Assembly (NCBI GenBank): GCA_015061915.1
Contig: SUVR01000010.1
Span: 1 to 64,000 of the forward strand
Reading direction: 5' to 3'
From: Lentisphaerota bacterium
GTDB taxonomy: Bacteria; Verrucomicrobiota; Lentisphaeria; Victivallales; UBA1829
DNA length: 64,000 bases
Shown: positions 36,900 to 52,870 of the stretch, piece after piece
Numbering within the stretch: the stretch's first letter is position 1
Layout of the letters: each line of letters begins with the position of its first letter
Program-made: the position numbers and the translations under genes
The notes under the pieces: generated by a model
Databases searched by the model: none
What the model saw: the letters and a program-made list of their open reading frames with translations, nothing else
What the model was told of the DNA's origin: nothing

Positions 36900-37178
36900 A
36901 TGACAAGATCAATCAAAAAAGGTCCCTTTGTGGACTACTATCTCATCGAGAAGATCGAAAAGATGGAAAAGGCCGGCGGCGCCAAGAAGGCGATCAAGAC
37001 TTGGTCCAGACGTTCGATGATCATTCCGGAATTTGTTGGTTATACCTTCAACATTCACAACGGCAAGACCTTTGTCTCCGTGTTTGTCACGGAAAACATG
37101 GTCGGTCACAGACTCGGTGAATTCGCCCCGACCCGTACGTTCAAGGGTCACGGCGTTATCTCCGGTAAGACTGTCTGA
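36900..37178 (+). CDS. rpsS: 30S ribosomal protein S19
   Basis: [22 protein letters not shown]...[50 protein letters not shown]. Confidence 0.99.
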
Positions 37179-37208: not shown

Positions 37209-37242
37209 AACGGGATGCAGGAAACTGCATCCCGTTTTTTTG
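37209..37242 (+). terminator. Strong intrinsic terminator after rpsS
   Basis: AACGGGATGCAG-GAAA-CTGCATCCCGTT, 12-bp perfect stem with GNRA tetraloop followed by a T-tract. Confidence 0.92.
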
Positions 37243-37270
37243 TGTTTAAAGAGTGTAAGTACGGAAAAAA

Positions 37271-37397
37271 GCGGCGCAGGCGCAGCAGCCGGACCGCCGG
37301 AAAGGCGGTCCGCAGCCCCTTTACGCTGGCGTAAAGGGGGCAGCCCTTGCAGTGACCGGATTCCGGTCACACAAGGGCGCTGCTGCGCCTGCGCCGC
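37271..37397. repeat. Nested palindrome (cloverleaf-like element 1): 19-bp perfect outer stem enclosing three hairpins
   Basis: GCGGCGCAGGCGCAGCAGC (37271-37289) pairs with GCTGCTGCGCCTGCGCCGC (37379-37397). Inside: CGGACCGCC/GGCGGTCCG (37290-37312), CCCCTTTACG/CGTAAAGGGG (37316-37339), GCCCTTG..GTGACCGG/CCGGTCAC..CAAGGGC (37343-37378). Confidence 0.85.
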
Positions 37398-47133: not shown

Positions 47134-50100
47134 TTACGCCTGACCGGCTGCCTTGCGTTCCGCCGCCACCTTTTCGCTGATGGACCGCAGAACAGTCAGG
47201 TCCAGCTTGCCGCTGCCGAGAAGGGGCAGGGCGTCCACGGGATAGAAGTTGGTTGCTTTGGGGATCCAGAGGTTGGAGATACTTCTTTCCCGCAGTTCCG
47301 CCACAACTTCTTCCGGAGTCATCGGCATATCCGGCGTATAGAGGACCAGGAGAGCTTCGCCCTTCTGGGCATCCGGGATACTGCCGACAGCCACCACGCG
47401 GTTTTCCAGACCAAGCTGTTCGTTGATGATACATTCCACCAGCTCGTGGGGGACCATTTCCCCGGCGATTTTGCTGAACCGGGAGAGACGGCCGCAAATG
47501 GTCACATAACCGGTTTCGTCCATCTTGGCGATGTCGCCGGTATTATAGAAGCCATCGATCAGCACCTTTTCGGTCTGTTCGGGATCGTCCAGATAGCCCT
47601 TCATCACATTGGGTCCCTTCACAAAAAGGAGCCCTTCCGTATCAGGCGGGACCGGCTTGTAGGTCAGAGGATCCATAATGCGGATACACATAGTCTCCAG
47701 ACCGAGTCCGATCGCGCCTTTCTTACCGAATTTTGTGCCGGTATCCAGAATATTGGGGCAGAGGTTGATCGTGGTAACGGGGGAGAGTTCCGTACAGCCG
47801 TATCCTTCCAGCAGCTCCCGTTTCCCCTGAACTGTCTTGTAGAACTTTTCGGCGATGTCCGCACGCAGTTTTTCGGCACCGGAGATCACGATCCGCAGGT
47901 AATCGAACGCTTCAGGCTTGAACTTGCGCAGATAGGTCTGCAGGAAGGAGGGAGTTACCACCAGAATGGATGTTTTGTACTTGATCACGGCATCGCCGAT
48001 CAGAGTTGCATCCAGCGGGTTCTTCACGAACACCACTGCCTGCGTCCGGACGACCAGCGGCAGGATCACGCTGCAGGTCAGACCGAAGGAATGGAACATG
48101 GGCAGGTTCCCGAAGATACTGTCCTTGCTCTTGTCAATGGCAACCGCCTGCACCATGGCATCAATATCAGAATAAATGTTGTGGTGGGTCAGACGCACGC
48201 CCTTCGGAATACCGGTGGATCCGCTGGAGAAAAGCAGCACGGCATCGCCGCGGCAGTTATCGTAGCTCAACGGAGCGAGCATATTCAGCAGTTCCCGGTA
48301 AGGCAGGATCAGGATCCCGATCAGCGTTACGATCTTTTTCCAGGTGGGTACGCACTTGACAATATCTTCCAGAAAGACCATTTCAGGCGTGGGCTGAAGA
48401 CGGACTTTCGCCAGGAAGAGTCTGCTGGTCAGAACCAGATCGATTTTCGCCTTCTTGATGGAGAGTTCCAGAATCTCCTGGGACGTAGTGAAGTTCAGCG
48501 GACACGGCACCCGGTCGGCAAGCAGAGTCCCCATAATGGCGAGAACACCGGCGGTACAGTTGGGCAGCAGAACCCCCACATATTTACTGTCGGGACTGGT
48601 GCGTTTCCGGATCTCACGGCTGAACAGCACGGATGCCAGGAAGGTCTTGAAATAGGTAAAGGATTTTCCGTCATCGGCATCCCGCATGACCACGTGGAAC
48701 GGGTGGGTCTTGGCAAATTTACCCAGCAGGTAGTGGGCGGGGTGTTCGTGGGGATAAAGTTTCTTGATCGCCGTATCCGCTTTCAGTTCCGTGATCGTCT
48801 GGCGGACTTCAAAGGGCGTAGTCCCCTTTGCGATGGGATCGCCGATGGTGATCGTGGTGCAGAGCGGGAAGGAACGGGGCATACGGAACCGGATCGGACC
48901 GTGGAAGTAGGAGAAAACACTGCCCCAGGTGCCGCCGACAGCCACCGGGATCACCGGTACATCCAGATCGGCAGGAAGCATTTTTTCGTAAACCGCAGAG
49001 AACTTGCCCACGATCCCGTTATGAGAAGGAGTACCTTCCGGGAATACGCACACAATGTCGCCTTTCCGCAGGGCATCCTGCACCAGTTCAAACATTTCAC
49101 CGATGCTTTTGTATTTGCCGGAGGAGGGCACTTTGATGAACCCGGTCAGACGGGCAAGCCAGCGGAGACCCGGCTTCTTGAAGTATTCCTCCTGCATCAG
49201 GAACCGTACGCGGCGGGAAGTGCAGGAGCTGATCAGGATCGGATCAATGAAGGAGGCGTGGTTCGCCAGCAGCAGAGCAGGTCCCCGTTCCGGGATCTTT
49301 TCCGTGCCTTCCGCATCGATTTTGTAGAAGATCTTGCCCAGTGTGATCAGCAGGAAACGCAGAGCGAAATCCGGCATACCCCACATCGTGATGAATGTGA
49401 CGATCGCCGTGAACAGCCCCAGAGTCAACACCAACGTCTGCGGCTGGATCGCCGGAGAACTGGCAGCAAAACCATCCATCCATGCCGGAAGCTGGGCGGA
49501 ATCTTTCGCCAGACCGATCGAAAGCCAGAAAAACAGTCCGTTCACCAGCACCAGCGAGATGCTGCTGAAAAGATTGAGTACCGCCATAGCAGATGCCCGG
49601 TGGGCAGGCGCAAGACGCTGCAGGAAGAAGGCGCGGATCGGAATAATGAAAAGTCCCGCACTGACTCCGGCAAAGAAGAAACAGATGATCTGAGTCCAGT
49701 ACAGCTGGAAGACCATATTGTTTACCACGCCCGGAATAGTCACTTCAAGATAGGAGGCGGAACCGGAGGCATATACGCCCGCGATCAGGAACGCCGCCGC
49801 ACCGGCAGCACCGAAGGGAACCAGACCCAGTTCGATTTTTTTCTGGCTGAATTTTCCGGCAAGCAGACAGCCGATGATCAGACCGACCAGCGGGGCAAAA
49901 CGCAGCATCGCCACATCCTGTGCGTTCAGATCGGCATTCAAAGTGTACTTGGCGAAGAATCCCAGCATGATCAGAAACGCCGTGCCGAAACCGAAGAACA
50001 GCGCCTGTGCCGCCATCGTCATGATCTGACCTTTGCTGCGGAACAGTTCGTGGAAACCATTTTTCAGCGTTGCACTCATCGGGTAGATCAGGGCGCGGTT

Positions 50101-50706
50101 CTGCTGCATGACCGATGTGGTATGCGTGATGCACATACATGATGCAAAGCCGCAGAGCGTCATGAACAGAGGCAGGAAAAGAATGTTGTGGTAGGAAATC
50201 TGGTAGCCGATATGCATCACTGCCACAGTGGCGATCCCCACTGCTGAACCAAGCAGAGACGCCGCATGAAAATGACCGTTCGCACTGGAAAGTTCACTTG
50301 CGTGGAACGTTTCCGGCAGAAGACCGTTCAGCGCGGGCGCAAAGAAGGAGCCGGAAAGAGAATAGACCGCCAGCAGAATCAGGATCGCTGTCACGCTGCA
50401 GTTGTCACCATCCAGCACGGAGAAGCCGCAGAGCAGGACAATGAATTCCAGAATCAGCGCAAGCAGGGTGATATAACGTTTGGGAAAACGGTCACCCAGA
50501 AAACCGGCAGGTGTGATCAGGAGGATGGGCAGGACTTGCATCAGAACAGAGAAGAGCAGGATCCAGACACCATTGGCAATGGAGTTGGTCATGCTGCCGC
50601 AGGCGATCAGAAGGGCGATCGTCTTGATGGCGTATTCGTTGAATGAACTGAAGAACTGTGCCGATGAGATCGGCAGCATCCGGCGGTTGAAGGTGGTCTG
50701 GAGCAT
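47134..50706 (-). CDS. aas: MFS transporter - acyltransferase (PlsC) - acyl-ACP synthetase fusion (LplT-Aas type)
   Basis: 1190 aa; N-terminal 12-TM MFS-like, PlsC motifs NHASFID and FPEGTPSHNG, AMP-binding motif LLFSSGSTGIPKGV. Confidence 0.92.
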   Translation of the reverse strand: MLQTTFNRRMLPISSAQFFSSFNEYAIKTIALLIACGSMTNSIANGVWILLFSVLMQVLPILLITPAGFLGDRFPKRYITLLALILEFIVLLCGFSVLDGDNCSVTAILILLAVYSLSGSFFAPALNGLLPETFHASELSSANGHFHAASLLGSAVGIATVAVMHIGYQISYHNILFLPLFMTLCGFASCMCITHTTSVMQQNRALIYPMSATLKNGFHELFRSKGQIMTMAAQALFFGFGTAFLIMLGFFAKYTLNADLNAQDVAMLRFAPLVGLIIGCLLAGKFSQKKIELGLVPFGAAGAAAFLIAGVYASGSASYLEVTIPGVVNNMVFQLYWTQIICFFFAGVSAGLFIIPIRAFFLQRLAPAHRASAMAVLNLFSSISLVLVNGLFFWLSIGLAKDSAQLPAWMDGFAASSPAIQPQTLVLTLGLFTAIVTFITMWGMPDFALRFLLITLGKIFYKIDAEGTEKIPERGPALLLANHASFIDPILISSCTSRRVRFLMQEEYFKKPGLRWLARLTGFIKVPSSGKYKSIGEMFELVQDALRKGDIVCVFPEGTPSHNGIVGKFSAVYEKMLPADLDVPVIPVAVGGTWGSVFSYFHGPIRFRMPRSFPLCTTITIGDPIAKGTTPFEVRQTITELKADTAIKKLYPHEHPAHYLLGKFAKTHPFHVVMRDADDGKSFTYFKTFLASVLFSREIRKRTSPDSKYVGVLLPNCTAGVLAIMGTLLADRVPCPLNFTTSQEILELSIKKAKIDLVLTSRLFLAKVRLQPTPEMVFLEDIVKCVPTWKKIVTLIGILILPYRELLNMLAPLSYDNCRGDAVLLFSSGSTGIPKGVRLTHHNIYSDIDAMVQAVAIDKSKDSIFGNLPMFHSFGLTCSVILPLVVRTQAVVFVKNPLDATLIGDAVIKYKTSILVVTPSFLQTYLRKFKPEAFDYLRIVISGAEKLRADIAEKFYKTVQGKRELLEGYGCTELSPVTTINLCPNILDTGTKFGKKGAIGLGLETMCIRIMDPLTYKPVPPDTEGLLFVKGPNVMKGYLDDPEQTEKVLIDGFYNTGDIAKMDETGYVTICGRLSRFSKIAGEMVPHELVECIINEQLGLENRVVAVGSIPDAQKGEALLVLYTPDMPMTPEEVVAELRERSISNLWIPKATNFYPVDALPLLGSGKLDLTVLRSISEKVAAERKAAGQA

Positions 50707-52675: not shown

Positions 52676-52687
52676 GCATAAGACGAC

Positions 52688-52861
52688 AGATCTGCGCATC
52701 AGCCGCAAGGCGGCGCAGCAAAAAGCCAGCCGGAAAGCCGGCTGGCTTTTTTGCGCTTTTTTCCGGACGGCAAAAATGCCGCCGTCCGGAAAAAAGAAAA
52801 ACGCAACTGCGCTTGCAGTTGCGTTTCGGCGCCGCCCTGCGGCTTGATGCGCTGTAGATCT
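52688..52861. repeat. Nested palindrome (cloverleaf-like element 2): ~28-bp imperfect outer stem enclosing three perfect hairpins
   Basis: GATCTGCGCATCAGCCGCAAGGCGGCGC (52689-52716) vs GCGCCGCCCTGCGGCTTGATGCGCTGTAGATC (52829-52860). Hairpins: GCAAAAAGCCAGCCGG/CCGGCTGGCTTTTTTGC (~52718-52754), CTTTTTTCCGGACGGC/GCCGTCCGGAAAAAAG (52756-52796), AAACGCAACTGC/GCAGTTGCGTTT (52799-52826). Confidence 0.85.
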
Positions 52862-52870
52862 TCCGCCCGG

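What the first reader, a model, noticed from the sequence alone, without database searches (positions are those of the whole stretch)
37271..37397. Cloverleaf-like nested palindrome 1 between rpsS and the convergent hydrolase gene
A 19-bp perfect outer inverted repeat (37271-37289 / 37379-37397) encloses three back-to-back hairpins of 9, 10 and 7+8 bp; nearly every base is paired. On the minus strand the outer stem is followed by TTTTTT 7 nt beyond the hydrolase stop codon, so it could act as a very large terminator. A simple terminator would not need three internal arms. Alternatives are a dispersed mobile palindromic element, an attC-like folded-ssDNA recombination site, or a structured 3'-UTR/ncRNA. 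It also sits exactly at the S10 operon breakpoint.
Basis: seen in the sequence. Interest (0 to 1): 0.74.

Follow-up and report, generated by a model that had tools for sequence, protein, structure and literature searches.

The report
Dispersed three-armed palindromes ending convergent genes
A gut bacterium of the Lentisphaeria group carries many copies (about 80 by extrapolation) of a DNA element that always folds as one stem holding exactly three hairpins although the hairpin sequences differ from copy to copy; most copies sit between genes that run towards each other, where they look like two-way stop signals for transcription.

Summary
In detail: 37271-37397 folds into a 19-bp perfect outer stem enclosing three hairpins (z about -12, both strands). 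It is not a one-off. A structure scan of 1.13 Mb of this genome found 36 elements with an outer stem and exactly three arms (roughly 80 per genome by extrapolation), one of them at 52685-52863. None turned up in 441 kb of same-family genomes, in 535 kb of diverse bacteria, or in shuffled sequence. Arm sequences are mostly unrelated between copies; the outer stem shares a weak motif, CAGGGCGCRG. Twenty-one of 36 lie between convergent genes (odds ratio 9), close to stop codons. Twenty of those 21 carry T/A tracts in the arms against 6 of 15 elsewhere. Usually arm 1 is followed by T6-8 on the plus strand and arm 3 by T6-8 on the minus strand: two back-to-back intrinsic terminators. All nine orthologous sites checked in the sister species are occupied, with compensatory changes and, at two sites, loss or gain of whole arms. 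Best reading: a genus-specific family of bidirectional terminators or insulators with conserved three-arm topology. Neither the terminator function nor the reason for the outer stem and exactly three arms is shown. Copy 1 is atypical: only its minus strand has a T tract.

The parts
37271..37289 (.). element 1, outer stem 5' arm (19 bp, contains GGCGCAG motif)
37290..37312 (.). element 1, arm 1 (9 bp)
37316..37339 (.). element 1, arm 2 (10 bp; no T tract in this copy)
37343..37378 (.). element 1, arm 3 (15 bp, 7+8 with a bulge)
37379..37397 (.). element 1, outer stem 3' arm
37265..37270 (-). TTTTTT on the minus strand directly after the outer stem: possible terminator U tract for the hydrolase transcript
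37209..37242 (+). ordinary intrinsic terminator of rpsS (12-bp hairpin plus T7)
36900..37178 (+). rpsS (ribosomal protein S19), left neighbour
   Evidence: Pfam PF00203
37404..39029 (-). Peptidase_S15/PepX_C hydrolase, right convergent neighbour; stop codon 6 nt from the element
   Evidence: Pfam PF02129/PF08530
52685..52716 (.). element 2, outer stem 5' arm
52718..52754 (.). element 2, arm 1 (A5-hairpin-T6, followed by the T6 of arm 2)
52756..52796 (.). element 2, arm 2 (CTTTTTTCCGG...CCGGAAAAAAG)
52799..52826 (.). element 2, arm 3
52829..52863 (.). element 2, outer stem 3' arm

Best explanation
This is one copy of a genus-specific dispersed family of about 110-200 bp nested palindromes (outer stem plus exactly three arms), most of which act as bidirectional intrinsic terminators or insulators between convergent genes. 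In the common layout, plus-strand transcription meets hairpin arm 1 followed at once by the T6-8 that opens arm 2 and stops there. Minus-strand transcription meets arm 3 followed by the T6-8 that opens arm 2 on that strand. The T and A tracts pair with each other as the base of the middle arm. A polymerase that reads through makes an RNA that folds completely into the outer stem, a fail-safe terminator or a barrier to antisense RNA and to 3' exonucleases. In copy 1 the internal tracts are missing, perhaps because rpsS has its own terminator; only the hydrolase side carries a U tract, after the outer stem. Shown: topology, copy number, placement, T tracts, orthologous conservation with compensatory change. 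Inferred: termination itself, the fail-safe role of the outer stem, and why there are three arms.
For: 36 three-arm elements in 1.13 Mb; convergent context 21/36 against 70/401 gaps overall, odds ratio 9, p 5e-9; nearest inward stop codon usually 17-45 nt from the junction; T/A tracts in 20/21 convergent and 6/15 other copies, p 4e-4. Convergent gaps with an element have hairpin+T5 on both strands in 16/21, gaps without one in 11/54. Arm1-T and T-arm3 terminators found on both strands under a stricter rule. The sister species keeps the structure: all nine sites checked are occupied; stems change far less than loops (39 of 133 aligned loop sites substituted; 349 of 383 aligned stem pairs unchanged), with 8 double Watson-Crick changes and further ones in the outer stem and middle arm of the L241/L231 pair.
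Against: If termination at arm1-T were efficient, the rest of the element would not be transcribed, yet the outer stem and the inner part of arm 2 are also kept paired, so simple termination cannot explain everything. Fifteen of 36 copies are not convergent, nine of those lack paired T/A tracts, and two (L032:18071, L034:7899) lie in frame inside coding sequence. Loops show no GNRA/UUCG preference and wobble pairs show no strand bias, so RNA-level selection is not demonstrated. No transcript data exist.
Confidence: 0.62

Rival explanations
1. A dispersed palindromic element family that spread once in the ancestor of the genus (the outer stem acting like terminal inverted repeats with motif CAGGGCGCRG); convergent 3' ends are simply safe landing places and T tracts were acquired secondarily.
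For: Shared outer-stem motif in most copies; restriction to one genus; T tracts missing in most non-convergent copies; two copies in frame in coding sequence, as known for Rickettsia palindromic elements.
Against: No empty orthologous site among nine checked; arms are not homologous between copies; no linked transposase: Y1_Tnp is one truncated ORF here and absent from the sister assembly; no target-site duplication was evident in the flanks (by eye only).
Confidence: 0.3
2. The arms are perfect palindromes because of a DNA-level process (template switching / quasipalindrome correction at hairpins), and the three-arm cruciform or four-way junction is a DNA structure recognised by a protein (nucleoid, segregation or recombination), with termination a by-product.
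For: Arms are nearly perfect Watson-Crick and change in concert including length (window element 2 against L164, L036 against L178); no RNA loop or wobble signature; whole arms lost or gained at the junction (L039:2350, L026:2750); two synteny breaks coincide with elements.
Against: T tracts track convergent context, which a DNA-only role does not predict; SbcD, expected to cut extruded hairpins, is present in both species; no candidate protein was identified.
Confidence: 0.25
3. An ordinary large terminator with chance extra hairpins.
For: Copy 1 alone could be read this way: outer stem plus TTTTTT on the minus strand.
Against: 36 copies with exactly three arms, none in shuffled sequence (382 kb) or in same-family genomes (441 kb).
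Confidence: 0.03

Closest known systems
X-shaped / bidirectional intrinsic terminators of convergent genes (cf. PMC8355165, PMC5381666)
   Same: Hairpins with T tracts on both strands between convergent genes; compensatory evolution of the stems
   Different: Known forms are one shared hairpin or two hairpins on opposite strands; here T tracts point inward, pair with each other as a middle arm, and the whole is enclosed by a paired outer stem
REP / BIME / REPIN elements with RAYT transposases (PMC3733652)
   Same: Dispersed extragenic palindromes in many copies
   Different: REPs are 20-40 bp with conserved sequence and GTAG or CGTC tags; here topology is conserved, arm sequence is not, and no full RAYT gene was found
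Rickettsia palindromic elements (RPE, described in PMC3733652)
   Same: Palindromic repeat that can sit in frame inside coding sequence (two copies here)
   Different: RPEs share sequence; these share only topology and an outer-stem motif
Integron attC sites
   Same: Folded palindrome
   Different: A single imperfect hairpin with defined boxes and extrahelical bases (own knowledge); here a multi-arm structure with perfect arms

Membership tests
intrinsic transcription terminator | GC-rich hairpin directly followed by a T tract | tested here: met
   Both strands in 16 of 21 convergent gaps with an element; copy 1 only on the minus strand via the outer stem
intrinsic transcription terminator | located just after a stop codon | tested here: met
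   Nearest inward stop mostly 17-45 nt from the junction
intrinsic transcription terminator | RNA 3' ends map to the T tract | not testable with these tools
   No transcript data for this uncultured organism
REP/REPIN with RAYT | conserved short palindrome sequence across copies | tested here: not met
   Only 12 arm pairs share a 12-mer among 78 arms of 26 copies
REP/REPIN with RAYT | associated tyrosine (Y1) transposase gene | tested here: not met
   One truncated Y1_Tnp ORF in this genome, none in the sister assembly, which is 72% complete
MITE / mobile element | presence/absence polymorphism at orthologous sites | tested here: not met
   Nine of nine orthologous sites occupied, two of them with fewer arms
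known Rfam RNA family | match at or above the gathering score | tested here: not met
   Only tRNAs in the window; element 2 gives sub-threshold chance matches
integron attC | linked integron integrase and R/L boxes | not tested
   No cassette arrangement seen around the two window copies; integrase not searched for

The most novel reading that the evidence does not exclude
A dispersed element family defined by secondary-structure topology (a four-way junction with exactly three arms) rather than by sequence, whose arms are gained, lost and rewritten as modules while staying perfect palindromes, read at the DNA level by an unknown junction-binding factor and used by the cell as bidirectional terminators.
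Probability: 0.25. Interest if true: 0.85.

Novelty: new variant of a known kind. Interest (0 to 1): 0.68.

Why it matters
Bacterial repeat families are normally recognised by shared sequence. This one is nearly invisible to sequence search (blastn with copy 1 gave only weak partial hits) and shows up only as a repeated fold. If the terminator reading holds, about a third of the convergent gene pairs in this genome use an elaborate, genus-specific terminator design. The puzzle of why three arms and why the outer stem is conserved is directly testable.

Tried and rejected
Plasmid search with the element: no match. Rfam: no family. blastn in own genome: mostly noise, but L005 and L010 proved to be further elements on folding. 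First loose structure scan gave many background multiloops and was replaced by a strict Watson-Crick detector. Absence of SbcCD as the reason palindromes survive: rejected, SbcD is present in both species. RAYT link: rejected. RNA tetraloop and wobble-strand signatures: none. Element at the rplV side of the split S10 operon: none found. Literature searches found no description of such elements in Lentisphaeria or elsewhere (open-access papers only).

Full report
Observation. The structure is real and at the stated coordinates: 19-bp perfect outer stem, arms of 9, 10 and 15 bp, six unpaired junction bases, fold z-scores near -12 on either strand. Corrections: six nucleotides separate the hydrolase stop codon from the outer stem; the TTTTTT on the minus strand follows the far end of the element; rpsS has its own hairpin-T7 terminator at 37209-37242.

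Copies. The organism is a Lentisphaeria MAG; its closest held relative, G001, appears to be record JAGAPM01 (Lentisphaeria bacterium RGIG8655, water deer caecum): the relative's contig 15 and JAGAPM010000241.1 are both 14,856 bases and both hold the hydrolase orthologue. I scanned 836 kb and then another 295 kb of the genome for multiloops with Watson-Crick stems and completed the list by hand for interrupted arms: 36 elements, all with exactly three arms. The strict scan gave 26 three-arm hits and 3 weak two-arm ones. Second-order shuffles (382 kb) gave none. Same-family genomes (441 kb) gave none, 240 kb of same-order genomes gave one weak two-arm hit, and 535 kb of diverse bacteria gave only two- or four-arm hits in GC-rich sequence, no three-arm one. 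Extrapolated, the genome holds about 80 copies; sampled contigs were chosen because their lengths were known, so this is rough.

Anatomy. In the 31 cleanly parsed copies the median length is 156 bp, outer stem 25 pairs, arms 11, 18 and 12 bp; the middle arm is the longest or tied in 25 of 31; the junction has a median of 2 unpaired bases, at most 6. Arms differ between copies: few pairs share a 12-mer, mostly middle arms through their T/A-tract bases. The outer stem's 5' arm carries a weak motif CAGGGCGCRG, usually 2-5 nt from the junction. Because the arms are inverted repeats the motif reads the same on both strands, so the outer stem gives the element no direction. L026:2750 lacks the motif and overlaps another repeat, so it may be a look-alike.

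Context. With gene calls from a simple dicodon model trained here (my own script, not a published gene finder; spot checks with Pfam), 21 of 36 elements lie between convergent genes against 70 of 401 intergenic gaps of at least 60 bp (odds ratio 9, p 5e-9). The nearest stop codon pointing at the element is usually 17-45 nt from the junction. Internal T/A tracts occur in 20 of 21 convergent and 6 of 15 other copies (p 4e-4). The one convergent exception is the copy of this finding, where rpsS already has a terminator. Sixteen of 21 convergent gaps with an element have a hairpin plus T5 on both strands, against 11 of 54 without. These tests were chosen after seeing the data.

Evolution. Nine sites could be compared with G001: both window copies, L032:5441, L042:10423, L036:17174, L039:13433, L241:2662, L026:2750 and L039:2350. 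All are occupied; the first window copy is cut by a contig end. In the seven aligned, 39 of 133 aligned unpaired sites are substituted, while 349 of 383 aligned stem pairs are unchanged; 8 changed on both sides to another Watson-Crick pair. The middle arm of window element 2 was rewritten from a 41-nt to a 23-nt palindrome. At L026:2750 the relative lacks arm 3 and at L039:2350 it has only arm 1; assembly error at hairpins is possible. At L042:10423 and L039:13433 one flank is not homologous, so rearrangement ends coincide with elements.

Mechanism. The common layout, arm 1-T7 ... A7-arm 3, is two intrinsic terminators back to back, one per strand, with their T tracts paired to each other. That accounts for arms 1 and 3 and the tracts. 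It does not account for the paired interior of arm 2, the outer stem, or copies without tracts, two of which lie in frame in coding sequence: a Memo-AMMECR1 protein whose Memo domain starts right after the element, and a PMT_2-type membrane protein. Either read-through RNA folding has a function, or the DNA fold itself matters, or a DNA-level process keeps hairpins perfect. I found no RNA loop or wobble signature that would decide this. The explanations are not mutually exclusive: a family that spread once could now serve as terminators, so the confidences given do not sum to one.

Comparison. Nearest in function are bidirectional (X-shaped) terminators; nearest in distribution are REP/RPE-type repeats. 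Conserved arm sequence and an associated RAYT gene, which define REP, were tested and not met. I found no description of three-arm elements in open-access papers, which is not proof of absence.

Noticed in passing
window 37178; G000:C2:240090-240401: The S10 operon is split in this genome: it stops after rpsS in the window, and rplV lies on another contig.
   Followed up: partly
L036:9900-10490: A small gene, resembling four-helix-bundle/S23-type proteins by eye only, flanked by arrays of a 7-bp GCGGAAT-like repeat in inverted orientation; similar arrays occur at several contig ends of the sister genome.
   Followed up: partly
L039:8390-8520: Another dispersed repeat with several copies in the sister genome; it overlaps in sequence with the outer part of the L026:2750 element.
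   Followed up: no
G001 contigs C15, C191, C147: Contigs of the sister MAG end inside or close to three-arm elements, so these palindromes probably break short-read assemblies.
   Followed up: no
window 47134-50706: A 1190-aa protein joining MFS transporter, acyltransferase and AMP-ligase domains.
   Followed up: no
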